Assembly (NCBI GenBank): GCA_002205965.3
Contig: NADL03000592.1
Coordinates: 62,001-126,000 of the forward strand
Length of the DNA: 64,000 nucleotides
Source of the DNA: Kappaphycus alvarezii
Lineage: Eukaryota; Rhodophyta; Florideophyceae; Gigartinales; Solieriaceae
Direction of reading: 5' to 3'
The number at the start of each line of letters is the position of its first letter. The first letter of the stretch is position 1. The translations under genes were made by a program, and so were the position numbers. The notes beneath the pieces are model-generated. The model had not been told where the DNA came from. It was given only the letters and a program-made list of their open reading frames with translations, and did not search any database. Positions 8,736 through 56,454 of this stretch are shown here, one piece after another.

Positions 8736-10025
8736 AAACTTGGATAGGAATCTAGTTCTATGAATTGGTTTTAATCCCACGGTGCTTTATACCTAATATC
8801 TTTATTTATGCATAAACATTTTACTTGACGTAGCGGCGTGCTTCGTGTCTTTGCAGTAGTTCTTTTAGTAGTTAAACTTTATAAATACCTGTTCCCTAGT
8901 TACTACTGTATACTTTAGTGAGTAAACTACACTTTACTCGTACTCCACTAGAGCTACAGTGCTAGCTATAAATGAGGGAGTCTTCTGGATTCTTGAGGGG
9001 ATCTAGCTACACTCCATTGACCGTTGGCCCCCAAATTTCTGAAATCCACTCCCATCGTCTCCACTAATCCTTTAGCACAGCCCTAGCTGCTTCCCTCTCT
9101 TTTTCACCAAACCACGAGGAACGGAGATAGAACAGCCATTCTTTCTTTCCTGTACAAGTTTATGAGGATAAAGACTAATGTCATCATGTGGTCTTAACGG
9201 TGGATTTTCATTGAATATTTGTTCTCGTGTCCATTTTGGACGAAAAACTATGGCATTTATCCCTTCAGTCTACCAGTACCTAGTTAGTTTCTTATCTATA
9301 AACCCTATCAAATTCTTACATGCAGCTCCCTTGTCAACGTCAGCTTCTATGAACTTCCGAGAGCGTTGTGCTATTTAGCTTTCGGAGATGTGAAGCAGTA
9401 TAAAATGATCTGTGGCTGATGAAAATTTGTATACAGCCTCCCGAAGCTAATACGGATGTTTACCAAAGAACAAACTTACATCCTCCTAGCGATTTGGGAC
9501 GTCTATGGGTCCCATATTTACGCTTGCTGCTATCAACAGTGTAGCTGAATAACGACCTATGCTCTTAATTTTCTTGAGGACAGGCTAGCCTAGCAGTGGC
9601 ACAAGTCTTAGGGTACCTAAAGCCCGTAATTACAAGATTAATAAGTCTTCCTTGTCTCCTAAGCGATTAAAAGTAAAGTCAGTTGCCGCTATGTGGGCAG
9701 TGAGATCAAGAATATAGCTTATTTGCAGCTGCCATGCTGTGCTGAATCACTGCTGGGACAAGAAAATGGTTAAAAGGATAGGATAGGTACTGGGAGAGGT
9801 AGAAGGTGGGAGTAAAAGTAAAAGCACTGAGTGGACATGGTTGGCCAGGTCGTCCCGCTCTTTTTTCTTTTCTTTTGGCCTTGCTAGTCGAGGGGACGCT
9901 GCCTTTACAGAACTACAGAATTAACTTGATCGCATCTCCTCGAAAAGTATTCAAACATCGCCGTCGGGGAGTGAGCCTAGTCTGATACTGGAACTATAGA
10001 TATAAAATTAAAAATAGTGCACTGC
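8736..10025. other. Interval without recognisable genes
   Basis: Mixed AT-rich sequence. The longest ORF (66 codons near 9178) has no recognisable content. Confidence 0.5.
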
Positions 10026-24840: not shown

Positions 24841-26048
24841 ATGTCTCAGAGCAATTTACCAAAAATACTTGGTAGAGGGTCCCGAAAAATTGACAAAAAT
24901 AGATTCTCTGGAGTTTCTCGCCAGAACTTGCGTAGCGAGCAAACTATGTGTATCATTTCAAGTTCCACTAGCAGCAGGAGAAATACCTCAAGGGCACGGG
25001 CAGTGCTAAAAGAATATGTGGAATCAATCAGCACACCACAATATCTAGTCCAAGATCCTGTAACGGTTACCCCGGAGTCATCAAAATTGGTCATGAACTT
25101 ACTCTACGACTACTGTAAGATGAGCAGCCCTGATGCTCTTTCAAATGACTCTGTTGCTGCGCTTGTGCAAGGATTGCGTACAGTATACGATAAAATGGAC
25201 ATCGTGGCCGTTGGAGTGTAAATGATGAGAACGGAGTAGCCAAAGGTAACCCTCTAAACGGAAATGAAGATATCGTTAAGCTACGTGCAGCACATAGGGT
25301 CCACCTTTCTCAAATTGATCGGTCCAAATTAAGAGCTCGGCCCCTACAGATGTCTCATGTGTGTGAACATGCGGCTAGATTCTGGTTTGGCAACGGAAAC
25401 TCATTGGACTACAGGGACGTGCTACTTCATGCAATTATAATAATTGGATTAAATATGGGCCTCAGGTTCGATGAAATTCGAAAATTGGAAATCGGACACG
25501 TCACGGTACATCCTGGCATGCAAGGTACTGGAAGCATCATACTTTCAATTACAGGCGCAACTAAAAATTCCACGAGACCGAAAGACTATGTGCTACGCGG
25601 TTGGCCAGGAAATACAGAGTTACGTAACTCTGTTCTAGTCGACCCATTTGTGTCACTTCTATCGTGGCTGTGTATACGTGGAAATCGACCAGGGTATTTG
25701 TTCTGTAGTGTGAACGAGAAGAATTTGATTGCTACTGAAAAGTCGTTTAGTGTAAGTCAGTTTACTGCCTTACTTAGGAGCAGGCTCAGGATGTGTGGGG
25801 TTGGCTCACGTGACCTTAGCATGTACTCCGGCCATTCCATCAAACGCGTTTCCGTCCAGCTTTACAGGTCTCTTGACATTAGGGATGAGCAAGTCATGGA
25901 AATCATTCAAATGTCTGGAGATCAGGCATATGCCAATTACTGTTCAGCTTACAATGATTGTGCACCCTCAGACTTGCCGAGATTTACATCACGAGCTGCA
26001 TTTATAAAGCATGCTGAGGCAATCAAAGACGAAAAAAGTAGTGAATGA
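24841..26048 (+). CDS. Tyrosine recombinase (Crypton/DIRS-like), one frameshift
   Basis: This is an about 400-codon coding region in two frames. The N-terminal part (24841-25221) is a helical DNA-binding region ending YDKMD. The second frame, open from 25203 without a stop, has VAKGNPLNGNEDIVKLRAAH and then the catalytic domain. The domain shows MGLRFDEIRKLEIGHV (first catalytic Arg), SGHSIKRVSVQLYRSLDIRD (His-x-x-Arg box) and MSGDQAYANYC (nucleophile Tyr candidate). This box order defines phage-integrase-type tyrosine recombinases. Eukaryotic mobile carriers are Cryptons and DIRS elements, and no RT lies beside it in frame, so Crypton is favoured. A single shift near 25200 would join the halves. 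ATG 24841 is chosen because the frame before it is repeat-derived. The product would cut and rejoin DNA in the nucleus. Confidence 0.75.
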
Positions 26049-27361: not shown

Positions 27362-28501
27362 TTACTGAGGAAGGTGATTATGAATCCCTTTTCGTGTGAT
27401 AATCCAACCTTCATTGTCTCTTAGTTTTCTTGCATTCCATGAAACTTTGCATCCTCTTTTCTCCTCAGGACAAGTAAACGTTTTACGCTGTGAGAAATGC
27501 CTGTTTTTGCTAAGTACATGAGTTTTCCTGCGATAAATCTTTTCGCCCTTTTCCCATGATTCTGTTACATATTTATCAAGACTTTCAACATTTTGACCAT
27601 ACTTCTCATATACTCCGTCCGTACCCAGCCTGAATTCTTTATTCAGGCTGCCTTCTGGAGAAAATCTCATCCTATTATTTGTAATATACGTTAGAATGTC
27701 AATTTCACTCGTTCTTTGGCCTTTCTCCATATAAACTTCTTCCACACGCATCAAGGATGCTTTAATGGCAGAAGAACGTAATTTTTTCGTTGTATCCGCC
27801 GAGTATTCTTCATACCCGTAAGGATATATGATACCAGTAGACATTGCAAATTGCATCATCATCGAAATTACGTAGAAACCACAACTGTATCCATCCAATT
27901 GCTTTTGGTATCCTAGTATATCAGTCATATAGTTTTCAGATCGTATAAGCCAATCAGCGTTTGGAAACATCTTAACCATTATATCATGAACCACTTCCAA
28001 GATGCTTCCGAATGGTTTCCACCCAAGACTGTCAGCCCAGTAAATTGAACCATCTTTGGTCACGACAACACTCCCCCAGTGCTCATTATGAGTGATATTT
28101 ATGAGCACTGTTACCTCCGGGTTTTGACATTGGCTATTAACAACTGTTTGGCACTTTAGTCTTGCGATTATTCTTGTAATTGCTGTTGACAAATCTTTTT
28201 CCAGGGCTGCGGACAGTATCATATTGGATTTCACAGGAGGGGTTACAATGGTATTAAATGGGAAGTCCATTTCTGATAGAGCACCAATCAGAATGTGATC
28301 GTCGGCGAAACTATCTGGTTTCAGAAGGCTCAGCCAAGTTTTTTGACGGAAGGATGCGGGCACATGCTGCTCTTCGCGTAGCTTTTTTCGAATGTAACAT
28401 TCGACTGCTTCACAAGTAGGCACCCCGTGAAGCTTAAGCGAGCGAATAATGCCCCTTAAACGAGCAGGACCGTGGCGATGGGAACTCGAGGCCATTTGCA
28501 A
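27362..28501 (-). CDS. ULP1-type cysteine protease with C-terminal zinc-binding motif
   Basis: A 379-aa intact frame. Residues about 110-215 form a C48-like (ULP1/SUMO-protease) fold: THNEHWGSVVV with the catalytic His (141), SIYWADSLGWKP with Asp (157), and QKQLDGYSCGFYVISMMM with the oxyanion Gln (201) and nucleophile Cys (207). Near the C-terminus, C344 and C351, then HNH at 374-376, give a C-x6-C-x22-H-x-H pattern like the WRKY/FLYWCH/GCM zinc-finger group. That combination is known from transposons (for example Mutator-like and other ULP1-carrying elements) rather than from housekeeping desumoylases. It converges on the tyrosine recombinase gene. The start is ATG 28501. Catalytic residues look intact, so the protein may be functional; the target is unknown. 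Confidence 0.78.
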   Translation of the reverse strand: MQMASSSHRHGPARLRGIIRSLKLHGVPTCEAVECYIRKKLREEQHVPASFRQKTWLSLLKPDSFADDHILIGALSEMDFPFNTIVTPPVKSNMILSAALEKDLSTAITRIIARLKCQTVVNSQCQNPEVTVLINITHNEHWGSVVVTKDGSIYWADSLGWKPFGSILEVVHDIMVKMFPNADWLIRSENYMTDILGYQKQLDGYSCGFYVISMMMQFAMSTGIIYPYGYEEYSADTTKKLRSSAIKASLMRVEEVYMEKGQRTSEIDILTYITNNRMRFSPEGSLNKEFRLGTDGVYEKYGQNVESLDKYVTESWEKGEKIYRRKTHVLSKNRHFSQRKTFTCPEEKRGCKVSWNARKLRDNEGWIITRKGIHNHLPQ

Positions 28502-34201: not shown

Positions 34202-35692
34202 TTCTCACGCCAACAAATGTTGCGGGCCCTGACGCCCTGACTCTGTCGGTTTATTAACTTGATTTATGGCCGTGCCCCTCCTTTCGTTCTACCTTCCCAT
34301 CACCCCCCCTTTCTCTCCAGTTGCGAGAGTTCTCAACGAGGTGATTCCGCCAGCATGGTCTTGATCTCCCTTGTTCCCCAGGCCCTTATCAACCGGGAAT
34401 CCGCTCAGTGTGATCTTCTGTTGAGCTGCAGGTACGCAGACAACGGCACGCTCATCGGTCGCATCTCGGAGGCGGCCAAGGCAATTCAGATCAAAGGCTC
34501 GGTCCCGAAATCAACTTGAAATCAAGAAATCCAAGTCCCGCGCCTTTGGCCCACCATGTGTTCCATCCGGCTCCGTGCCCTGACCGATGCTGTCCCCGTC
34601 TCCCTGGTGTCTAAAAATGACATTTCGCTTTTCGGCGCCCCCTTAGGCTCCGACGACTCCATGCTTCAAAACCTTCGCACTTCCATAGAGAGCTGCAAAC
34701 CAGCATTGGCTCTGCTCAACAGAATTCCCGATTCCCGCACCAGCTTCCATTTCCACCGCGTGACTTCGTCGGTCTGCCTCGCTCAACACATCTCCCGCAA
34801 TGTGCCCGCAGATTTTTCACGTTTGCTCGCGAGGCGGTTATAGAACCTTCAGATGGAGGTATGTGGCCGCCTTAATCCCGTTCCCGCTGGCTCTCAGGTT
34901 ACAATCCCCATGCGGTTCGTTGGGCATAGGTTCCCACGTTTACCGGTAATATCCATTCTTCTACGCCGCGAGCCTGATGGCAGCTACAAAGCATCGATTC
35001 ACTTGCCCTGGCTTTCTTCACCACTCCATCTACCGTCGCATTCGCCGCCTTCCCACCCGTGGGCACTTCGCACTCGACCCTTGCCCCCTCTAGCCCGAAA
35101 CACTTGCCGAACGTATTGACCGTCCCTTCGCTATCCACTCCAGATGCTGCAAACCGCTTCGGCGCGCACATGCTGTGAGGGTGACATTTGAGACACCCAC
35201 CCAACCCCCGCGACCATAGCGCCACGCACCTCCAAGGTCCACAACGACGTCTGCTCAGTTGTGCCGCGCCGCCATCTCGACTCCTCGTTTACGTGGACAC
35301 CGCAGTCCTGATCCGTTGCCAACATTGCCGTGATCCGATGGACCCTCAAGGTGATGTCGCCTGGATCTTCACGTCTGGCCTTGGCTTTTGCACCAGCACA
35401 ACACCAATCAGAACCAGTTCACCGGACATGTTTTCAAGCCGCCAGTCTCGCATGTCCACGCAAAGTTACATTCCCACTCGCTGGCACCTCCGATCACCTC
35501 GCGAACATCGTGGTCCAACCCTACCTCCCAGTCAACGGTTTACGTCCCGCCATACTCACGGCCGACGACATTACGTTCCGCTTTACGATTGCGTCCGCAA
35601 TGATCTGACAGGCCGCTTGCAAGGCTGCTAGGGCTGCTGAGCTCGCTGATGGCTCGAAACTTAATGTCGTGACGGAGGTGTGCGAAGCAGTT
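34202..35692 (+). pseudogene. RLE retroelement remnant, group E, 5' part (interrupted)
   Basis: Plus-strand pieces: SSQRGDSASMVLISLV (RT motif B near 34330), LSCRYADNGTLIGRIS (motif C with YADN, near 34430), SLFGAPLGSDDSMLQNLRTS (thumb), RFPRLPVISILLRRE, and a CQHC pair near 35320 that may be the knuckle. The end (35600-35692) reads KAARAAELADGSKLNVVTEV. It is cut at 35692 by the LTR element and resumes at 38797. Confidence 0.7.
35688..35692. repeat. 5' target site duplication (cagtt)
   Basis: The five bases cagtt directly precede the TG of the left LTR and are repeated directly after the CA of the right LTR (38792-38796). Confidence 0.85.
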
Positions 35693-35939
35693 TGAAACAG
35701 GTGAAATGACCGTTGCAACCTCGGTACATGCTATCATGCTGAATGCATTACGTTGGGACGCCCAGTGTCAGATTACTTTGAATATATGTGTCCTTTGAAT
35801 ATTTGAATGGCTGAAGGGTCGTGAGGCGATAGGTCATTGCACCATTTAAGGCTTGAATGGATGAAGGAGATGACATCAATAGAGGATTGGAGGTATCGGT
35901 TTTCAGATGGAGTAAAGACCATGTTCCTCTGTTGTTTCA
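35693..35939 (+). repeat. 5' LTR of the NTPase-carrying element
   Basis: 247 bases, tgaaacaggtgaaatgaccg to ctgttgtttca. It differs from the 3' LTR at about four single positions and by a 7-base duplication (tgttgtt) near the 3' end of the right copy. No strong TATA box is visible; tgaatatatgtgt near 35780 is the best candidate. Confidence 0.88.
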
Positions 35940-35940
35940 C

Positions 35941-35955
35941 TGGTAGTATCGCAAC
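35941..35955 (+). promoter_or_regulatory. Primer-binding-site candidate
   Basis: tggtagtatcgcaac lies one base after the 5' LTR. It begins TGG, complementary to the universal tRNA CCA end. TGGTAG is also the start of many initiator-Met primer sites. The complementarity beyond that needs the host tRNA set. Confidence 0.55.
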
Positions 35956-36228
35956 AAGTCTCGGGGAATGAGAGGTTGTCGATTGGGAGGAAAAGTCCGG
36001 GACCGGTCCGTGCTGCGTGATATGGGACGCGCGGCATGCAAAACAAGTAGGGTCTGCTGAAACTTGAGTGCCAATTTAGATTGTATTTCGGCGTCTGTGA
36101 TAGCGCTCGTATTGAAGGGTTATCTCTCGCTGCTCGGGCGCACAACACAAGTGGAGGCTACCTTGAAAAGCCTAGCGCTGAGCGGGAGGCTCAAGTTCGC
36201 ATAGACGTGAGGGCTATGTTGAAAGCTC

Positions 36229-36252
36229 GGCTCCGGGTTCTCACCCGGAGCC
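36229..36252 (+). promoter_or_regulatory. Strong hairpin in the element's leader
   Basis: ggctccgggt (36229-36238) and acccggagcc (36243-36252) form a perfect 10-bp GC-rich stem with a 4-base loop. It sits about 260 bases before the NTPase ATG, where LTR elements carry packaging or dimerisation signals. Function inferred from position only. Confidence 0.5.
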
Positions 36253-36513
36253 AGAGGCTCGGAGAACGTGGAAGCTACGGTTAAACGCTGTCTGTGTTTT
36301 GCAAGGACCAGACAGGTACGCATGAGCCCAGCAAGAGATGAATTGCCGAATAGCAGTGGCAGGGCTGTTGAGAAGAATGGCGGAGAACTTTGATTTGCTC
36401 CGAGATGCCATTTGAAATCGTATTGGCCAAGCCTGTGACCGGCTTGGAATGGATGCAAAAATTGTTTTGTGCACATTGCAATGCAATGACTTTGAGATTT
36501 TTTTATCTGCGCC

Positions 36514-38457
36514 ATGGAAACGGCCCAAACCACCAAGGCGAACGTTATCTCCATCATGCTGGTCGCCTTCATTGCACGGGCGTCCGCGGTCTTCCTAACG
36601 TCGTCGCGCTCGTCCTTTCATCGCGATGGGCTACGCCGCATATTCCCTGCATCGCCCACTATTGAAATGCCGTGCTCATATCGCGCGTGTTTGTGCCGAG
36701 AATTACATCACACGAATGAGACTCTTCGTGAATCACGGGTAACCGTGGGAAAACTCCCAGCTTTCGAGGGCGCTGGGGTGGACGTTTCCCGCAAGTTTTT
36801 GAGAGACGAAGAAGTTTTGGACAAAGTGGAGTGGGATAGGCAAAAAGAACTGGATTCGCTTGCGCAAGAGCTCGTGGAACTGCATACTGAACTTCAAGAT
36901 GCTTTGGCCGCCAAATATGAAGTATACGTCGCTCAAAGGAAAAAAGGCGCTCGTGTAGAACATCTTGGCCATGGTGTTTACGTGCAATACGGTGTACAAG
37001 CACTTGATACTGATGGCCTAGAAGGTAAGACAGCTACCATCACTCGTGAAGAAAGTCGGAGTTGCGTGCGTCATGCCCTGGACGCCTTGCAGAATCGCTT
37101 TAGGGTTGCAGTTACCGGTCAGCCAGGTATTGGCAAGACTCGGGGATCTATGATGTATGCGATCCAGTGTCTTCTCTATCGACAGGCTGCTGTGCTGTAT
37201 GTCGGGTATAAGTCGCAGGAAATGTTGCTGTTCCTGCCGAGAGAGGACGGCAAGTACCGGGTTTGGAGTGGAAGCACAGATAAGTTCGGAGAATCAAGAT
37301 TCGTTAAGGAGCAACGTTTGGTAGCAGTCATAGACCCGCCGGAGGACGGACTGTATTCGTCCCGTGGAAGTTGCCGGATACTCAAGTTTGTTTCAAACAA
37401 TGCTGAACAGCATTTCAGGAACTGGGAAAAAGACGGCACTCTACTAGTGACGTCGATGCCTACGGAAGAAGAGGTCCTAGCTATGACGAGAGTTCTGTGG
37501 GACGATGAGAAGTCTCCGCACCCATGGCAGATCGGTGAATTAAATACGATGGAACAGAAGATGAGCGAAGTCGAGAAAAGAATTGAGCTCGTTGGAGCTA
37601 TCCCGCGCCTTGTCTTCGCATCGGAATTGTTTGGACTAGCAATCAGAGGGTGCCTACAGGGTGCTGAAGTAAGTACCGAAAAGCTCACTGACTCGGACCT
37701 GTACAAGGCTCTCCGAGGGAAGTACAGACCACTTCTCGAGAAGCACCCAGAATCTGCTTCGTCAAGAGTTTTCTTTTTGAGCCCAAATACGTTGATATTC
37801 AGCACATGGAAGGAAAGATCGCGGCATCCCGCTGCTTTCCAACTTTCCCCCATAGCAACACTTGTTCTTCGTGACCGTCTGGAGCATAGCATTGAGGTCT
37901 TGAGGAAGGACAAATTTGAAGACTTTGCGTTTGAATGGCTTTGTGAGAAGCAAGGACGGAAAGCTGAAATTCAATACGTTTCAGATGCTGATCACAGCAG
38001 TGCATACCAAAGAATTGCTTCTATGGATGAAGAAGAGCTACGAGTATATCGTCCTGCTGCAAATAACTTTCCATTTATTGACTTTGCAACGAGCAAGACG
38101 ACGTGGTACAATGCGAAGTCAATTAGTAAGGAGATCAAGACAGTGCCAATTGACGAAGACGGAGCTAGAAAATTCCTGGATAACCTGAAACGAGTTTTAC
38201 TTGACAAGTATTCCTGTGATGAAGTCCAAGCCATACTGAGGCGTAGCAAGCCTGTGCTAACTGCCATAACTAATCGTGACGCTCAGATAAGGTTTCGCGA
38301 CTCGAAAGCGGCGTTAGACTTCTTTGGCCATCGTGTGATACTAAGGGTGGAGAACGTGTCTGATATGTCTCTAGCCGGAAATCTGTTGGAAGGTATTGAT
38401 CGAACGACTGCGCTTCTTGATGAATTCCAAAGGCAGCAAACAATAGATCTGGGTTGA
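36514..38457 (+). CDS. Crinkler/RHS-type P-loop NTPase with nuclease-like C-terminus
   Basis: A 647-aa intact frame. Residues 10-28 are hydrophobic (signal or membrane-like); 100-140 are helical and charged. The NTPase domain has VAVTGQPGIGKTRGSMMYAI (198-217, Walker A GQPGIGKT 202-209), VLYVGYKSQEMLLF (227-240), LVAVIDPPED (269-278, Walker B-like) and LLVTSMPTEEEVLAM (310-324). This arrangement is characteristic of the NTPase of oomycete/fungal Crinkler and trypanosome RHS proteins. The C-terminal part has YRPAANNFPFIDFAT (512-526) and WYNAKS (531-536), compatible with the degenerate restriction-type nuclease fold joined to such NTPases. Family members act on host nuclei or are thought to work in conflict between genetic elements; no function is proven here. 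It is the sole gene of an LTR element. An alternative start is Met52, which would remove the hydrophobic segment. Confidence 0.82.
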   Translation: METAQTTKANVISIMLVAFIARASAVFLTSSRSSFHRDGLRRIFPASPTIEMPCSYRACLCRELHHTNETLRESRVTVGKLPAFEGAGVDVSRKFLRDEEVLDKVEWDRQKELDSLAQELVELHTELQDALAAKYEVYVAQRKKGARVEHLGHGVYVQYGVQALDTDGLEGKTATITREESRSCVRHALDALQNRFRVAVTGQPGIGKTRGSMMYAIQCLLYRQAAVLYVGYKSQEMLLFLPREDGKYRVWSGSTDKFGESRFVKEQRLVAVIDPPEDGLYSSRGSCRILKFVSNNAEQHFRNWEKDGTLLVTSMPTEEEVLAMTRVLWDDEKSPHPWQIGELNTMEQKMSEVEKRIELVGAIPRLVFASELFGLAIRGCLQGAEVSTEKLTDSDLYKALRGKYRPLLEKHPESASSRVFFLSPNTLIFSTWKERSRHPAAFQLSPIATLVLRDRLEHSIEVLRKDKFEDFAFEWLCEKQGRKAEIQYVSDADHSSAYQRIASMDEEELRVYRPAANNFPFIDFATSKTTWYNAKSISKEIKTVPIDEDGARKFLDNLKRVLLDKYSCDEVQAILRRSKPVLTAITNRDAQIRFRDSKAALDFFGHRVILRVENVSDMSLAGNLLEGIDRTTALLDEFQRQQTIDLG

Positions 38458-38536
38458 AAGCTTCCTGGTTGTGCGGCTGTGCCTGTTTTTAATAGAAGCA
38501 TTGACGCGGACGTCAATCGATGCGGGGTGTCCATGG

Positions 38537-38791
38537 TGAAACAGGTGAAATGACCGTTGCAACCTCGGTACATGCTGTCATGCTGAATGCATTACGTTGG
38601 GACGCCCAGTGTCAGATTACTTTGAATATATGTGTCCTTTGAATATTTGAATGGCTGAAGGGTCGTGAGGCGATAGGTCATGGCACCATTTACGGCTTGA
38701 ATGGATGAAGGAGATGACATCAATAGAGGATTGGAGGTATCGGTTTTCAGATGGAGTAAAGACATGTTCCTCTGTTGTTTCTGTTGTTTCA
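38537..38791 (+). repeat. 3' LTR of the NTPase-carrying element
   Basis: 255 bases, starting tgaaacaggtgaaatgaccg, ending ttgtttctgttgtttca. The ttgtttc block is duplicated relative to the 5' LTR. Upstream, gatgcggggtgtccatgg is only weakly purine-rich, so the polypurine tract is poor or decayed. Confidence 0.88.
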
Positions 38792-38796
38792 CAGTT
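38792..38796. repeat. 3' target site duplication (cagtt)
   Basis: cagtt directly after the CA end of the right LTR, identical to 35688-35692. Confidence 0.85.
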
Positions 38797-48932: not shown

Positions 48933-49658
48933 TGATAGGGGTAAATCGGCGGGGGAAGAGATCTTCAGAACCAATTACCCTGAGAAGGAGGTGTTGCGAG
49001 CGACAAAAGTGCTACCGTGGTATTGTTGAACGAACAAAAGGGAGTGTATATAGAAGAGAGGTGAGAAAGCTAAAAGCAAATATAAAAGTATAAAAGGGGC
49101 AGGGTATACCACCGACGCTCTGCGACTAGCGTAAGAAAAAGTTTTCTTGGGTCTGAAGTTGACTCTCAACTTCCTACTACTCGGGACTTGGCTTGAAGTT
49201 GTCTGCCAACTTGCTTCACCTCCACTAAAGGAAGCAGTTTACTCGGCTTATATAGACTTTTGGCTACCCTAAAAGTCTCAAACAAACATACTAATAACCA
49301 TAAAATGCATTCACGGTAATCGTGTGAACCAGAGAGACTATTAGGAGATATTTCCTAAGATAAATATCTAGGTGCCATACCCATGCCAGCCGCCCATCGG
49401 CCAGGGGTGGGAATTGATGTGGCCATTATATAGACCTTTCAGAGCTACTTGTAGTATCACCCACAACCTGGAACTGTACTGACATCTACTATGACAGCGT
49501 GTCCTAAAATGAAAAAAATCAACCGATGAATTTGCCACACTCACCCAAATTAAAAATATTTGCAAATTCAAAAACTGTAAAAATATCTTCCCAATTCCGA
49601 TACTGTATACAATCATGGTCCTCATCTAGATTTTTTCGTGTGCGAATTTGGCACATCA
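48933..49658 (-). repeat. 3' LTR of the Ty3/gypsy element
   Basis: Sense strand starts tgatgtgccaaattcgcac and ends ccctatca. It differs from the 5' LTR by scattered substitutions and small indels (for example near 49070-49090). It directly follows the polypurine tract at 49659-49670 (sense gagcgagaggcg). Confidence 0.9.
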
Positions 49659-49690
49659 CGCCTCTCGCTCAAGACGAACGTCCCGACTCG

Positions 49691-51585
49691 TCACTGCTCT
49701 TCTTCTGCTTCCGTTAGTGTTCGCTGTCTTATTGATAAAATGTATGGTCTCTCAAACGGGTACGGATGCAACTGATTACCAATATGATGCTCTAAAAAGT
49801 AGGTTCGCATTACTGGTACCTCACTTTGTAGCATAGCCTCATATATTGGTTTGATAACATCGAGGTGGGGTTGAATACATTCTTCTTCCGTGACTCTTCC
49901 GAATCTTCCAAGAGTGAAAAAATATATGTGATATGCAAACTCTTCTGGAAGATGCCGGAGGAATGGATGCCGATAAGAAAAGAAGACGCGCATCATCAAG
50001 AACGAATCTTCGTAAGATAAGTGCGGTCCATGTAGCGCCCTAAAACATAAACAGATGCTTATCATGAAATAAGAAATGACCTGCGCATCGTTCGCATCCT
50101 CGGAGATATTGCGCAGCCAAAAAGATAATCTTCTTCTTCCGACTGTATGCTGTGCATGGTTGTGAAGGAGAGCTAGAGATGAAGTTGTGGTGGACGGTCC
50201 CGATGAATGGCCGCGACCAGCTCCTGACGTACTGGGACCTGCACGAGGTCCTCTCGGGGGACGACCGGAACCTCTTCTGGGCGGGTTGTTGTCTCCTGAA
50301 GGTCCTCCTCTGGTCATCATCACTGCTTCAGGAGGATCCTCGCCGCCTCCAACGTTCCCAATTTGTGGCGGAGAAACGTAAGGTTCCCATAGAGGATACG
50401 GGACCAGCCTGTATTCCATATCCGGGGGTAAGGCGTAACCTCTCAGTCGCACATCTTGGTTGTTCTTGAGAAATACGTAAATTGGACGGATAATATTCAG
50501 ATACGTTTGCGACAAGTCTCCAGCAGCTACCATTCCATATCTTCCTATAGAGTAATGATATATTACCTCCACAAACTCTGGACCTGCTTCCGTGAACCTT
50601 CCGTTTTGGAATGAAAATAGAACTCTTATTAATAGTCGGAAATCTTCTTCAGGTAGCAATGGTCCGTTCAACGTACGAAAACATAGGCATATATTAATGT
50701 AGAAATGGATGATTACGTGGAGTTCGTAGTAGTCCCGCGTAATCGAGATGATCCATTCCCAGGCCCTTTTTCCTCCCATAGGAATCATTCTATAGTTAAA
50801 GATGAGTATGCCCCGTGGTTGCGCATAGTCCTGTGTGAGAAGGAATTCTTCAGGCCTCTGATGGTAAGGGACCAGACGACGTGCATGGATGGCCCTCCTT
50901 GATCTCTTCCCTGAGCTTGAACAGAGCTGATAGTGCGGGTGTCTTTCCTCCGTGACGATGCAAGGGTTCGAGTACTTGGTTTGGAAGGCCGGCCACTTCA
51001 CAGCCTGCTGCATTGCTTTTCCATGTACTACAAGTACTTTAGAGCCAACTGAAAAGGTTCTGACTGCAGGTTCTGCATCCTTATTTCTTGTCTGTGTTAG
51101 CGCGCGGTGTGATCTCCAGCCTTCGGTGGCCAGTAGTTCAACTTCCCTACTCTCTTCATCGATAATATTTGTTTCCATGTCTCTCTGTAACATTCTAGGA
51201 GCCCTTCCGTACATTAGCTCGAATGGTGAGCGTCCATTTCTTCCTCTTCTTCGACGGTAGCCGTATAACACTTTTGGTAAGGCATCTTCCCACTGGATTT
51301 CATTCTCCGAATAGTTTTCGATATTGCTCGTTTGATGGTTCCAACCATCCTCTCCGCTTTCCCGTTGGACATAGGAGCGTATGCGAGAACGGTCTTCAGC
51401 TGAATCCCTTTCTCTTCCAAAAAACGAAGCAGTGAAGTTGCAGTAAAACAAAGGGCGTTATCCGAGATGATCCTTTTTGGAAGACCAAACGGTTCAATTA
51501 TTTCTTTTTCGATGAATCTCAGTACCACCTCAGCATTTGCCTCCTCAACTGCAACTGCTATTGGCCATCCAGTAAGATGTTCCAC
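49691..51585 (-). CDS. Integrase C-terminal half fused to a duplicated unknown domain
   Basis: The frame 51214-51585 has the integrase core: IEPFGLPKRIISDNALCF (second catalytic Asp) and YAPMSNGKAERMVGTIKRAI (catalytic Glu). After a frameshift near 51300 the frame 49691-51451 continues with WEDALPKVLYGY, SPFELMYGRAP and an SH3-like end (VGSKVLVVHGK). It does not stop there. Residues 230-359 (50375-50764) form a domain with INICLCFRTLNGPLLPEED and YHYSIGRYGMV. Residues 443-573 (49733-50125) repeat it as ISICLCFRALHGPHLSYEDS and YFFTLGRFGRV. A Gly/Pro/Ser-rich linker lies between. I do not recognise the domain; it is not a chromodomain. Confidence 0.75.
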
Positions 51586-53707
51586 CCTATAAGGAGATAT
51601 TTGTTTCCGGAAGAAGTTTCCTTGAACGGGCCCGCGAAGTCAATTGAGAAGGTTTCAAAGAGACCGGAAACTGGAAAACTTAGAGTTGTCTTATACTTCC
51701 GTATTGGAGTGAATTTTTGGCAGTTGTCGCAGCTTTTCACGAAATTATAGACGTCCTTATGGATACCGGGCCACCAGAATCTCTCAGTTACGAATTTTTT
51801 GGTTGTTTCGAGATCCCAATGCCCTAGCTCATCATGGAAAGTCCTCAAGATCTTCATTCTTTCTTTCAAAGGGGCCACTAGTCGGGGACCGGCTTTAGTG
51901 TGCCGGAAGAGTTTCCCATTCCACAATGTAAAAGCCTTTTGATTCCTGCGTACCCAATTTCGGTGTTCAAGATCAACCTTTCTCATTTCTAGTCCATCGA
52001 GGAATTTGATCAGTCCGTGAATATTAGCTTCGTACTCGTTATCGTTCGGCAACTGCAACTCGGCGACTCCGACGATGTCCTCCGAAGCTTTTTCATTTGG
52101 AATCAGTGCGTCCCTCAAGCGGGATAGGTAATCGGCAGGCTGATTATTGCGTCCGGGTCTATACACAATTTCAAACCGATATTCTGCGAAAATGTCGAGC
52201 CATCGGGCCAAGCGGTGATGTACATCCTTCTTTTGGAATGCTGTTTTAAGTGCCTGGTGATCAGTTATCAAGACAAATTTCTCGAGTGATAAAAGGTATA
52301 CGCGAAACTTTTTCAGCGCGAAGACGACAGCTAGCGCTTCTTTCTCGCAGACTGAGTATCTCTTTCCGCATCATTCAGAGTTCGGCTTGCGAATTGAACA
52401 GGGTGTAGTCTTCCGTTTTCATCTTTTTGGGACAAAACGGCACCCAAAGACCGTTCTGAGGCATCTGTCTCCACAACGAATGGTCTCTTGAAATCTGGGT
52501 ACATGAGAACTGGGGGGACACATAGCTTATCTTTAAGCTCCTGAAATGCAGTTTCCATTTCCTTGTTCCAGTAAAATTTTCCGTTCTTCGTAGTGCTGGC
52601 ATGTAACGGTGCTGCAGTCTTGGCGAAATCTTTGATAAATCTTCTGTAATATGAGGCCAGTCCTAAGAAGCTTCGGACCTCCGTCTTTGAAGCGGGCCTT
52701 GGTGCCAACTTTATTTTTTTCGTTTTCTCTGGATCCACTCTAATTCCCTCTTGGTCGACGATATGACCGAGTAATTGGATAGAAGTTTTCGCAAAGAAGC
52801 ATTTGCTCAACTTAATTTTCAAGCTATACTCCGATATCCTCTCCACAACTGTCTTGACGTGCGAGATGTGCTGATCCAATGTTTCTGAGAATATGACGAC
52901 ATCATCGATATAGACTCTTGCGAATGGAAGTCCTTTCAAAACCTCGTTCATCATTCTTTGGAATGTAGCTGGTGCATTCATGAGACCAAAAGGCATCACT
53001 TCGAACCTGAACGTACCGGCTTTGCTGGTAAAGGTTGTTTTTTCCTTACATTTTTCATCCAATGGAATCTGCCAATAGCCAGTGTAAAGGTCAATTGAGG
53101 TGAAATATCTCCCGTCCTTCAGGTCCTCGAGGATCTCCTCCATGTTCGGAATCGGAAATCGATCGGGTATCATTCTCTGGTTCAGTTGTCGGTAATCGAC
53201 GCAAAAACGCAGCTTTCCATCCTTCTTTGGTGCGACCACAACTGGAAACGACCATGGGGATGAAACTGGTCGAATAATATCATTTTTCAGCATACTTGTA
53301 ACATTTTCTGAGATAAATTGGTCATATTTTGGCGGTTGACGTCTAGGCTTGTGGTAAATCGGTTGAGTGTCGGTAAGTTCGAACGAGTGAGTAACCGGTA
53401 CACTTGCTTGTCTTAAATCTGAAACGCTCCATGCAATTACTTCGGAAGATGTTAACATGTCGGATATTTTCAGTGAGGCGGGGGCGGGAAGGTGCTGCAC
53501 TTTTCCTTGGATTTCTGCCATTTGGCGCCCTTTTTCTTCTTGATCCTCAACCTCAATATTTTGAAGGACCTCTTCCGTCGTGCTCACATCTTCATATATG
53601 GAATTCGACGTATTCTTATTTTCTTTGCAAAGGTAATCTTCTTTCATGCTCCGAATTCTGTCCTTTGATTCGATATCATCGCAAAAAGAAACACATTCGG
53701 GTTTCAA
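51558..53707 (-). CDS. Ty3/gypsy RT, RNase H and integrase N-terminus (frameshifted)
   Basis: Frame 52331-53707 holds RT: FCVDYRQLNQRMIPDRFPIP, YFTSIDLYTGYWQIPLDEKC (motif A), FEVMPFGLMNAPATFQRMMN (motif B), ARVYIDDVVIFSETL (YIDD, motif C), then the RNase H start FVVETDASERSLGAVLSQ. A one-base shift near 52360 leads to the frame 51558-52271: ITDHQALKTAFQKKD and IVYRPGRNNQPADYLSRL (end of RNase H), FHDELGHWDLETTKKFV and CDNCQKF (integrase HHCC finger), and FSIDFAGPFKE (first catalytic Asp). A second shift near 51580 breaks the integrase core. Confidence 0.9.
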
Positions 53708-53774
53708 ACTTATCCTAGAATCCAGTCGTCATCTGTTTCAAACCCGGAATCATAATCGTCCCATGCCATGTTCA

Positions 53775-54728
53775 TTACCCCCGAGGGTACCCTTTTCCAC
53801 TTCCGAAAGTGTTAGTTGGTTCCGAATCTTCGCTGTCATAGCTAGAAGTGAAATCTTCACTGTCCGTTTCTTTTAAATCTTCAGGATGCGTGCTTTTGTC
53901 GAAATCCAGGGGCATCTTCACGGTTCTGCCGTCAATATTAACTGAAACCATTTGGTTGCCCAAGTCAATGCATGTTCCTAGTCTTTCCATTGTGGGGCAG
54001 CCAATGATTGCATCGAAAGGGAGATCCGGCATGACAAGAAAGTCTACATCAACTTTAGAGTCCCCAAAGAACACGGAAACCTTGTCAACAGTGCCCATGC
54101 ATTTTGAGACGGTTCCATCCGCTACAGTTATTTTTCGAGTCGTTGGAGTAATTTCGAGACCTAGATCTGTCACCAAAGTTTCTGAAATGAGGTTTGGAAC
54201 AGCACCCGAATCGAAGAGAGCTTGGGTTTTCATACCCAATACTTTGACTGGTACCAGCTTAAGACGTCTTGGTGCTGTCGAGGCCGATTGAAGAAACAGT
54301 TTCTTACCCTTAGCGGACTTATTAGACCTGATAATTTTTTTGAGTTCTTTTCTCGCATCCTCTGCGTCGCCCCTCAAAAGTTGACCAAACGTTATCCCAG
54401 TTGGGGCCGATGCAAGCTCAGCCACCAAATTGTACCTCTTCACATACTCTAGTACGTCCTTAGAGATACTCTTAACTTTCTTACTCTTTTTCGTCTTCTT
54501 GGCCGGAGTGACTCCCACTCCTGGAACAACTTGATCAGACCTCTTGGTTCGAGGAGGTACAGGTGCTGGGATATGCTCCAGCATTCCATACTCTAGCCTA
54601 GGTTTCTTCGATAAAATGTTCCCTTCCCCATCCCTTTTTGTCACATTGACTTGACTAATCTCTTCAGCGATGGATACGTTACCGGCATCCGTCAACCTTT
54701 GATCCCTTCTATTTTGTAAGATTTTCAC
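53775..54728 (-). CDS. Retroviral-type aspartic protease
   Basis: 317 codons. The N-terminal part is basic, then residues about 160-300 form the protease: VLGMKTQALFDSGAVPNLIS with the DSG catalytic triad, TVADGTVSKCMGTV (flap region) and FDAIIGCPTMERLG, the usual hydrophobic-hydrophobic-Gly ending. The start overlaps the gag stop by four bases (54725-54728). It releases gag and pol proteins in the particle. Intact as read. Confidence 0.85.
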   Translation of the reverse strand: MKILQNRRDQRLTDAGNVSIAEEISQVNVTKRDGEGNILSKKPRLEYGMLEHIPAPVPPRTKRSDQVVPGVGVTPAKKTKKSKKVKSISKDVLEYVKRYNLVAELASAPTGITFGQLLRGDAEDARKELKKIIRSNKSAKGKKLFLQSASTAPRRLKLVPVKVLGMKTQALFDSGAVPNLISETLVTDLGLEITPTTRKITVADGTVSKCMGTVDKVSVFFGDSKVDVDFLVMPDLPFDAIIGCPTMERLGTCIDLGNQMVSVNIDGRTVKMPLDFDKSTHPEDLKETDSEDFTSSYDSEDSEPTNTFGSGKGYPRG

Positions 54729-55651
54729 CTCTGGTCCTGACTCACTCCTTGCTTCCGATAAATTTGCTCTTCTGTTGTCTTTAGACCAGCAGTTACTTTC
54801 ATGATGCCCATATCGACCGCACTTTGCACAACGAGTGTTTCTATGTGGATTATCAGGACACCTGTTTGCAAAGTGTCCAGGCTTGTGACAGTAAGAACAG
54901 ACTTCTGCGGCTTAGGGGCCCCAGACTGGTTCTTCTTAATGGTAAGAGTAAGGCTTTCCAACTGCGAGGTTATCATGTCAAGTCGATTATCGAATCGGGT
55001 TTCCAACCTTTCTTCCAAGTTTTTGACATCGCTCCTGACAGATTCTAATGCCGCTGCACTAGTAGCCGGCCTTTGATAATTCTTTTCAGGATGTACGATA
55101 GACATCGATGTGCGGGTTTCCCTCGGTACCTCACTCAGTGACTGAAACGTCTCCGAATTTTTGACAAATTCTACTATGGTACCCTTCAGTTCATCAAAAG
55201 TGTGAGGGCCCTTGATGAGGAGGAAATCGGAGAGCCGCTTATCCCCCATAGCCGCCTTACGCAGCATTCCGTACTTGGCTTGGGCGTTGAACCCAGCCTT
55301 TTCATAAAGATCACACAAGTACACCAATGAGCTTAACAAATCGTCGAAGTTGAGCCGGGCCTCTATGGCGGTACGAATCATCTCATCTGGTTCTACCTCC
55401 TTAGCATACTCTTTCACAAGCCACTCACATACCTCACCGAAGTTACGCCCATTCCCGTTAAGAGACCACCCGTCGATAAACTTGGACTTATATTTGTGCT
55501 TTGCGTCACCATGAAGATAGGCGAAGATACTTGCGGCCTTCTCTTCATCGCCCTTCTCACGCATCACAACGTTGACATATGTGTAAAGAAACTCCTCAAC
55601 GTCTTCAGTCTTGCCCCCTGTGAACGTTATACGAGCAGCGTTGAGATCCAT
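54725..55651 (-). CDS. Gag of the Ty3/gypsy element (zinc knuckles out of frame)
   Basis: 308 codons from ATG 55649-55651. The capsid-like part has VEEFLYTYVNVVMREKGDEE and IFAYLHGDAKHKYKSKF; a coiled-coil-like segment follows (VRSDVKNLEERLETRFDNRL). Two CX2CX4HX4C knuckles, CSYCHKPGHFANRC and CAKCGRYGHHESNC, are encoded at about 54800-54905, but in another frame than the capsid. A shift near 54915 therefore separates capsid and nucleocapsid. The first gag ATG is about 90 bases inside the 5' LTR border. Confidence 0.85.
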   Translation of the reverse strand: MDLNAARITFTGGKTEDVEEFLYTYVNVVMREKGDEEKAASIFAYLHGDAKHKYKSKFIDGWSLNGNGRNFGEVCEWLVKEYAKEVEPDEMIRTAIEARLNFDDLLSSLVYLCDLYEKAGFNAQAKYGMLRKAAMGDKRLSDFLLIKGPHTFDELKGTIVEFVKNSETFQSLSEVPRETRTSMSIVHPEKNYQRPATSAAALESVRSDVKNLEERLETRFDNRLDMITSQLESLTLTIKKNQSGAPKPQKSVLTVTSLDTLQTGVLIIHIETLVVQSAVDMGIMKVTAGLKTTEEQIYRKQGVSQDQR

Positions 55652-55720
55652 GATTACAGAAAAGAAATCCCCCGAAGTGTTCCTTACTACTGCTCAACTC
55701 GAATACCTCGGGTGCAACCC

Positions 55721-55736
55721 CTCCACAAGAGTACCA
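55721..55736 (-). promoter_or_regulatory. Primer-binding site of the Ty3/gypsy element
   Basis: Sense tggtactcttgtggag starts two bases after the 5' LTR. TGG complements the tRNA CCA end. The matching tRNA cannot be named without the host tRNA set. Confidence 0.65.
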
Positions 55737-55738
55737 AA

Positions 55739-56454
55739 TGATAGGGTAAATCGGCGGGGGAAGAGATCTCAGAACCAATTACCCTGAGAAGGAGGTGTTG
55801 CGAGCGACAAAAGTGCTACCGTGGTATTGTTGAACGAACAAAAGGGAGTGTATATAGAAGAGAGTTGAGAAAGCTAAAGCAAGTATAAAAGGGGCAGGGT
55901 CTACCACCGACGCTCTGCGACTAGCGTAAGAAAAAGTTTTCTTGGGTCTGAAGTTGACTCTCAACTTCCTACTACTCGGGACTTGGCTTGAAGTTGTCTG
56001 CCAACTTGCTTCACCTCCACTAAAGGAAGCAGTTTACTCGGCTTATATAGACTTTTGGCTACCCTAAAAGTCTCAAACAAGCATACTAATAACCAAAAAT
56101 GCATTCACGGTAATCGTGTGAACCAGAGAGACTATTAGAGATATTTCCTCAAGGTAAATATCTAGGTGCCATACCCATGCCAGCCGCCCATCGGCCAGGG
56201 GTGGGAATTGATGTGGCCATTATATAGACCTTTCAGAGCTACTTGTAGTATCACCCACAACCTGGAACTGTACTGACATCTACTATGACAGCGTGTCCTA
56301 AAATGAAAAAAATCAACCGATGAATTTGCCACACTCACCCAAATTAAAAATATCTTGTAAATTCAAAAACTGTAAAAATATCTTCCCAATTCCGATACTG
56401 TATACAGTCATGGTCCTCATCTAGATTTTTTCGTGTGCGAATTTGGGCACATCA
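55739..56454 (-). repeat. 5' LTR of the Ty3/gypsy element
   Basis: 716 bases, near-identical to 48933-49658. Sense-strand sequence includes a TATA-like gtctatataagccgag near 56040-56055. Followed on the right by the target duplication aagat (56455-56459). Confidence 0.9.

What the first reader, a model, noticed from the sequence alone, without database searches (positions are those of the whole stretch)
35688..38796. LTR element whose only gene is a Crinkler/RHS-type NTPase
Seen directly: 247/255-bp near-identical direct repeats with TGAAACA...TGTTTCA ends, a perfect cagtt target duplication, a TGG-starting site one base inside the 5' LTR, and one intact 647-codon gene with GQPGIGKT. No gag, RT or integrase frame exists inside. 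Established: Crinkler and RHS proteins share this NTPase and are linked to retroelement hot spots in trypanosomes and to effectors in oomycetes. Inference: an LTR parasite has captured such a gene, giving it mobility, or the gene serves the element in conflict with host or rivals. I do not recall this arrangement being described in an alga.
Basis: partly seen in the sequence, partly recalled or inferred. Interest (0 to 1): 0.95.

Follow-up and report, generated by a model that had tools for sequence, protein, structure and literature searches.

The report
Algal retroelement carrying a nuclease-NTPase gene
A small jumping DNA element in what looks like a red alga seems to copy itself with the machinery of common retrotransposons and carries one gene only, for a switch-like ATPase joined to a predicted DNA-cutting domain, whose switch part has been reshuffled between copies.

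Summary
The element (35693-38791) has LTRs of 247 and 255 bp, a CAGTT duplication, a primer site and one 647-codon gene. The host genome is held (336 Mb, unnamed, probably a red alga): 40 scored LTR matches and 76 NTPase matches, merged into 50 gene units. Of eight independent insertions readable at both ends, seven have exact 5-bp duplications and one 4 of 5. LTR end plus primer site recurs 193 times (control 0) and is complementary over 12 nt to the host's initiator tRNA-Met. Of the first 100 sites, 22 precede the NTPase and 30 a Ty3 gag. So it is a non-autonomous Ty3-type retroelement, very probably moved in trans; no classical polypurine tract was seen. The protein is predicted to be a STAND-like NTPase plus PD-(D/E)XK nuclease, the Crinkler-RHS core. 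New here: tandem arrays inside one target duplication; a mosaic NTPase part (median dS 0.78) beside a nearly uniform nuclease part (median dS 0.02); and array-end copies with 98-99.5% identical flanks but only 86.8% mean identity in the mosaic part. 'Capture' is not shown. Function is inferred only: perhaps a selfish or immune nuclease.

The parts
35688..35692 (.). target-site duplication CAGTT, left copy
35693..35939 (+). 5' LTR, 247 bp, TGAAACA...TGTTTCA
35941..35952 (+). primer-binding site TGGTAGTATCGC; family form TGGTAGCATCGC is complementary to the 3' end of the host initiator tRNA-Met (A73 and CCA assumed)
35953..36513 (+). leader; differs in kind between copies
36514..38457 (+). single gene, 647 codons: STAND-like NTPase plus predicted PD-(D/E)XK nuclease (Crinkler-RHS type)
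36514..36753 (+). N-terminal header, residues 1-80, predicted disordered, basic and poor in acidic residues; unrelated headers in other copies
36748..37503 (+). mosaic region, residues 79-330, including P-loop (202-209) and Walker B (AVIDPPE, 271-277)
37564..38454 (+). nearly uniform C-terminal part, residues 351-647, with predicted nuclease (E469, D523, N533-A-K535)
38497..38536 (+). expected place of a polypurine tract; longest purine run only 4 nt
38537..38791 (+). 3' LTR, 255 bp
38792..38796 (.). target-site duplication CAGTT, right copy

Best explanation
It is a non-autonomous, Ty3/gypsy-type LTR retroelement with a single stable cargo gene. Shown: LTRs with TG...CA ends, 5-bp target duplications, solo LTRs, and a 12-nt site complementary to the host initiator tRNA-Met that recurs, with the same LTR terminus, next to Ty3 gag genes. 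Inferred: its RNA is packaged, reverse transcribed and integrated in trans by such Ty3 elements. Afterwards copies grow into tandem arrays (LTR-gene-LTR-gene-LTR inside one target duplication), most simply by unequal exchange between LTRs, and exchange pieces of the N-terminal and NTPase part by recombination. The cargo is predicted to be an NTP-controlled switch joined to a PD-(D/E)XK nuclease, the core of Crinkler-RHS proteins and similar in parts to prokaryotic Avs immune ATPases. The most likely role (inferred, about 0.35 within this reading) is a conflict gene: on sensing a trigger the NTPase part licenses the nuclease to cut DNA of a rival element, an organelle or a cell lacking the element, so that the element gains by carrying it.
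Confidence: 0.82

Rival explanations
1. The NTPase is a host gene family that lives in tandem arrays; LTR sequences of an ordinary retroelement became part of the repeat unit and only seem to move it, as it is dispersed by recombination into existing LTRs (the model discussed for wtf genes).
For: Arrays, several near contig ends; eight loci share right flanks at 98.0-99.5%; the mosaic part shows non-allelic exchange. LTR-flanked wtf genes are a precedent (PMC11497594, passages seen).
Against: Different 5-bp duplications flank single units, and the order LTR end, PBS, gene is kept in 22 of 35 units. L050 has two identical LTRs, 0 of 247 differing, as expected of a recent retrotransposition.
Confidence: 0.1
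2. The gene is its own mobility enzyme: the ATPase-nuclease moves an element with terminal direct repeats, in the manner of transposon ATPase-nuclease pairs; the LTR resemblance is secondary.
For: Predicted DNA nuclease and ATPase in one protein. The review PMC5289972 (section 11 read) reports prokaryotic NTPase-REase proteins linked with transposable elements. Polypurine tract weak.
Against: A 12-nt site complementary to the host initiator tRNA, with the same LTR end as next to Ty3 gag genes, has no known role in DNA transposition. Solo LTRs with duplications are typical of LTR elements.
Confidence: 0.05
3. Passenger: the element is an ordinary non-autonomous LTR element and the gene is a neutral relic without benefit to element or host.
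For: Most copies read carry a frameshift or stop relative to the window's frame; dN/dS near 0.72 for recent changes.
Against: Across older divergence the gene is constrained: dN/dS 0.21-0.36 in 55 pairs of 11 of the 26 units and median 0.19 in residues 79-330. Motif residues are kept in relatives at 27-64% identity. 17 of the 25 non-window units show no stop in the window's frame, and their breaks are mostly single-base deletions, as unpolished long-read assembly would give (the cause is inferred).
Confidence: 0.2

Closest known systems
Crinkler-RHS (CR) proteins with NTPase plus REase domains (Zhang et al. 2016, not held; seen through the review PMC5289972, section 11 read)
   Same: RHSP-type P-loop domain, predicted PD-(D/E)XK nuclease, exchangeable N-terminal headers, mosaic copies (fragment recombination among Phytophthora sojae CRN genes, PMC3726527, passages seen)
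   Different: Header region predicted disordered, no ubiquitin-like fold; the gene is the only cargo of an LTR retroelement instead of a secreted effector gene or a gene merely hit by retroelements
Non-autonomous LTR elements: TRIM and LARD elements, and maize Bs1 with a transduced gene (all recalled)
   Same: LTRs, tRNA primer site, no gag-pol, presumed mobilisation in trans
   Different: TRIMs and LARDs carry no gene; Bs1 carries a transduced fragment; here one complete gene is constrained and has homologues on contigs of similar length elsewhere
wtf killer meiotic drivers of fission yeast (PMC11497594, passages seen)
   Same: Gene family tied to LTRs, non-allelic gene conversion, syntenic copies with low identity
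   Different: wtf genes are near solo LTRs and not shown to be units of retrotransposition; no relation of the proteins is known to me; drive is not shown here
Avs antiviral STAND ATPase-nucleases of prokaryotes
   Different: Nuclease C-terminal here, N-terminal in Avs3 (recalled, and as the aligned chain range 2-187 suggests); no repeat sensor domain seen; relation by fold only
Trypanosome retrotransposon hot spot (RHS) proteins
   Same: Shared P-loop family PF07999; association with retroelements
   Different: There retroelements insert into the gene (recalled); here the gene is inside the element

Membership tests
LTR retrotransposon (non-autonomous, Ty3/gypsy-type) | long terminal direct repeats with TG...CA ends | tested here: met
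LTR retrotransposon (non-autonomous, Ty3/gypsy-type) | 4-6 bp target-site duplications differing between insertions | tested here: met
   7 exact of 8 independent sites with both ends readable
LTR retrotransposon (non-autonomous, Ty3/gypsy-type) | primer-binding site next to the 5' LTR complementary to a host tRNA 3' end | tested here: met
   12 nt, host initiator tRNA-Met gene found; A73 and CCA assumed; window copy has one mismatch
LTR retrotransposon (non-autonomous, Ty3/gypsy-type) | polypurine tract before the 3' LTR | tested here: inconclusive
   longest purine run 4 nt in 40 nt; a short stretch GCGGGG ends 9 nt upstream; an atypical tract is not excluded
LTR retrotransposon (non-autonomous, Ty3/gypsy-type) | solo LTRs | tested here: met
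   L047, L052; L053 with 4 of 5
Autonomous Ty3/gypsy element | gag and pol inside the element | tested here: not met
   no recognisable frame between the LTRs (by eye)
Crinkler-RHS (CR) protein | RHSP-type P-loop NTPase | tested here: met
   PF07999 26.2 bits over cut-off 25; 16 of 20 members, window included, at E up to 0.1
Crinkler-RHS (CR) protein | REase (PD-(D/E)XK) domain after the NTPase | tested here: inconclusive
Crinkler-RHS (CR) protein | N-terminal header, ubiquitin-like in Phytophthora | tested here: not met
   residues 1-80 predicted disordered, pLDDT under 50; headers of other kinds in other copies
STAND NTPase | STAND ATPase core | tested here: inconclusive
Killer meiotic driver | biased transmission by poison and antidote | not testable with these tools
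   no genetic data

The most novel reading that the evidence does not exclude
A retroelement parasite carries, and spreads by retrotransposition, an immune-type STAND ATPase-nuclease whose switch part is repeatedly reshuffled by recombination while its nuclease part is kept uniform: a mobile, diversifying weapon or self/non-self recogniser, used against rival elements, organelles or cells lacking the element.
Probability: 0.3. Interest if true: 0.93.

Novelty: new variant of a known kind. Interest (0 to 1): 0.74.

Why it matters
Crinkler-RHS proteins are widespread effectors that have been proposed to have roots among transposons, largely from sequence relations and genomic association. Here the gene is the stable, only cargo of a retroelement with target duplications, primer site and a probable helper lineage, so the tie between the family and mobility becomes directly testable. 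The contrast between an old, recombining NTPase part and a uniform nuclease part inside one gene suggests that variety in the switch is kept, as in immune or drive genes.

Tried and rejected
Viral contigs gave no relative (19 pattern matches, none confirmed; records of the same genome may be left out there). The solved-structure sequence search gave only weak matches, best E 0.19, to antibody chains and the like. Foldseek on the whole model gave 3 matches with E up to 0.001, AAA ATPases with TM-scores of 0.06-0.19. Foldseek on the nuclease part was not run; 'pdb_via' rests on Foldseek's own list. Host name: I recall Kappaphycus alvarezii as a 336-Mb assembly of about 888 contigs; nothing or 134 confirms it. 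A Gracilariopsis chorda protein (P0017, 68% identity over 32% of the query) supports a red alga only indirectly. Organelle targeting of the headers: 1-3 acidic against 7-12 basic residues in the first 60 in three headers read here, but no predictor was run, so it stays a hint. A count of 3' junctions in the genome did not complete. Mean dS values contain placeholder values for saturated pairs; one search replaces them. Assembly error could contribute to array mosaics; single insertions at other sites show the same, but no reads were available. The permutation test also rejects a single history for residues 350-647 (19 of 22 units, 26 sites, 0 of 500), so exchange is not confined to the middle.

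Literature: searches (open-licence library only) listed no LTR element with a Crinkler-RHS gene as sole cargo. Only listings with titles and abstract openings were seen, and these were partial (for instance 15 of 17 papers, 10 of 12, 10 of 213, 12 of 2,859), apart from the papers cited. Zhang et al. 2016 itself is not held.
Full report
Check of the observation. The repeats, ends, 5-bp duplication, TGG site and the intact 647-codon gene are as described. LTRs are 35693-35939 and 38537-38791, with 4 substitutions in 246 aligned bases.

Is it a mobile unit? The genome of the window is held: 336,021,096 bases in 884 contigs, window = C588:62001-126000. The LTR gave 40 scored matches from 159 candidates and the protein 76 matches, which I merged into 50 gene units. 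I read twenty 10-kb loci. Flanks readable on both sides show the duplications CAGTT (window), GTGGG (L031), CTCGG (L050), GATTC (L032, whose 5' LTR is split by about 2.1 kb), AAACG (arrays, counted once) and AAAAA (solo LTR, L047, with a mutated end). Two further solo LTRs give CATTC (L052) and 4 of 5 (L053). So seven of eight independent sites are exact. L033, L034 and L049 have no 5' LTR in the sequence read and cannot be tested; L030 is a partial LTR; array loci that run off a contig or stretch (such as L037, L045) and L043, whose last LTR runs on into a leader, were not counted. L050 has two identical LTRs (0 of 247), a recent insertion.

What moves it? The sequence TGTTTCA, 0-4 bases, TGGTAGCATCGC occurs 193 times in the genome, its control 0 times. 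A tRNA pattern built from the complement of that site finds 9 places; the one printed is an initiator tRNA-Met by its A1:U72 pair, CAT anticodon and ATCGAAA loop (features recalled). Its 3' end, with A73 and CCA assumed, is complementary to 12 nt of the site, in one copy 13; the window's copy has one mismatch. One site without the NTPase was read (L051): after the shared 26-27 bases it encodes a Ty3 gag (Retrotrans_gag E 4.7e-14, Ty3_capsid E 1.1e-9) and, by eye, broken RT pieces (the RT piece of 118 aa had no Pfam match at E 0.001). The gag search gave 152 matches. Of the first 100 listed sites, 30 have a gag within 2.5 kb downstream, mostly at 0.9-1.1 kb; these are 30 of the 69 printed gags on C1-C588. 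22 have an NTPase within 2 kb, and 48 were assigned to neither. The element therefore shares primer and LTR terminus with a Ty3 lineage; mobilisation by that lineage is inferred. Against this stands the lack of a clear polypurine tract and of an autonomous copy with the same LTR body.

Does the NTPase occur without the repeats? On contigs C1-C588, where the site list is complete, 22 of 35 units have the exact site upstream. Of the other 13: the window copy has a one-base variant; C312:451 and C588:401107 run into a contig end; C204:68650 and C588:369261 have truncated 5' LTRs; C458, C462 and C63 have an LTR match beside them; C467:2076829 belongs to an array whose start was not read. C43, C206, C447:621013 and C537 show neither LTR match nor site. 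C622, C669, C715 and C736:1324700 lie beyond the printed site list and have no LTR match among the 40. These eight are unresolved, so an LTR-free host ancestor is neither shown nor excluded.

Tandem arrays. At C523 the arrangement is LTR-gene-LTR-gene-LTR-gene-LTR, at C860 LTR-gene-LTR-gene-LTR and at C588:365k LTR-gene-LTR, each with the same outer flanks and AAACG at the outer ends; inner LTRs are shared between neighbours. Right flanks of eight such loci are 98.0-99.5% identical in all 28 pairs over 0.9-5 kb and five left flanks 95-99%. So one insertion exists in copies with one, two, three or more genes, several near contig ends. Unequal exchange between LTRs is the simplest way; this is inference.

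Mosaic gene. Among seven single insertions (21 pairs) residues 350-647 are 96.3-99.4% identical in DNA and residues 80-330 only 69.1-87.6%. Median dS is 0.020 (residues 351-647) against 0.782 (79-330); median dN/dS is 0.72 against 0.19. In 12 of 21 pairs one 75-bp block of the middle part is at least 97% identical and another at most 80%; close-by sites are more compatible than in any of 500 permutations. Seven array-end units (of the eight loci; L044 was not aligned), with nearly identical flanks, still differ in the middle part: mean 86.8%, minimum 77.1%, against 98.2-100% in residues 350-647. So pieces were replaced after the duplication, unless the assembly is wrong there. Within this genome the four middle segments have mean protein identities of 71-82% (9 units), much as between the window and the relative P0001 (62-82%); P0002-P0004 are lower (42-77%). 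The C-terminal segments from 401 on are 96-97% within, but 33-34% (P0001) and 27-59% (P0002-P0004) between, from residue 450 on. Headers upstream of residue 78 are of at least three unrelated kinds. Over residues 79-647, dN/dS is 0.21-0.36 in 55 pairs of 11 units; 25 copies were aligned to the window's frame, 17 of them without stops. Breaks are mostly single-base deletions, as residual long-read errors would give, but real decay cannot be told apart.

Working model. Transcribed from the 5' LTR, packaged and copied by Ty3 proteins with the initiator tRNA as primer, integrated with 5-bp duplications; copies exchange switch segments by conversion or template switching; arrays form by LTR exchange. 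The encoded switch-nuclease is most simply a conflict gene. A passenger gene without benefit remains possible.

Comparison. The protein core is that of Crinkler-RHS proteins (PMC5289972 section 11 read), and fragment exchange, with near-identical C-termini behind different N-termini, is reported for CRN genes (PMC3726527 passages). LTR-tied, converting gene families exist (wtf, PMC11497594 passages). I found no report of an LTR element whose only gene is of this family in the listings of searches. I rate it a new variant of a known kind: a non-autonomous LTR element with a maintained Crinkler-RHS cargo.

Noticed in passing
window 48933-56454: Another LTR element with about 720-bp repeats at 97% identity and protease, RT and RNase H on the minus strand; its LTR ends differ from those of the NTPase element.
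   Followed up: partly
window 25350-26048 (+): ORF that by eye looks like a tyrosine recombinase (Crypton-like), no Pfam match at E 0.001.
   Followed up: partly
window 27362-28495 (-): ORF that by eye looks like an Ulp1-type protease with a C-terminal zinc-finger-like part; no Pfam match at E 0.001.
   Followed up: partly
window 8949-9107: Relic 76% identical to the LTR end of the Ty3 element L051.
   Followed up: no
L026, L041, L042 first LTR: Three loci share a 5' LTR cut at base 178 and the same sequence after it, so one internal deletion was copied with the segment.
   Followed up: partly
P0010 and P0009: Distant relatives begin with a hydrophobic signal-like stretch (P0010) or a presequence-like stretch (P0009), a hint of organelle targeting; no predictor run.
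   Followed up: no
P0001, P0002, P0004, P0005: Relatives lie on contigs of 2,853-2,959 bases, about one LTR plus internal part, as collapsed repeats would assemble.
   Followed up: no
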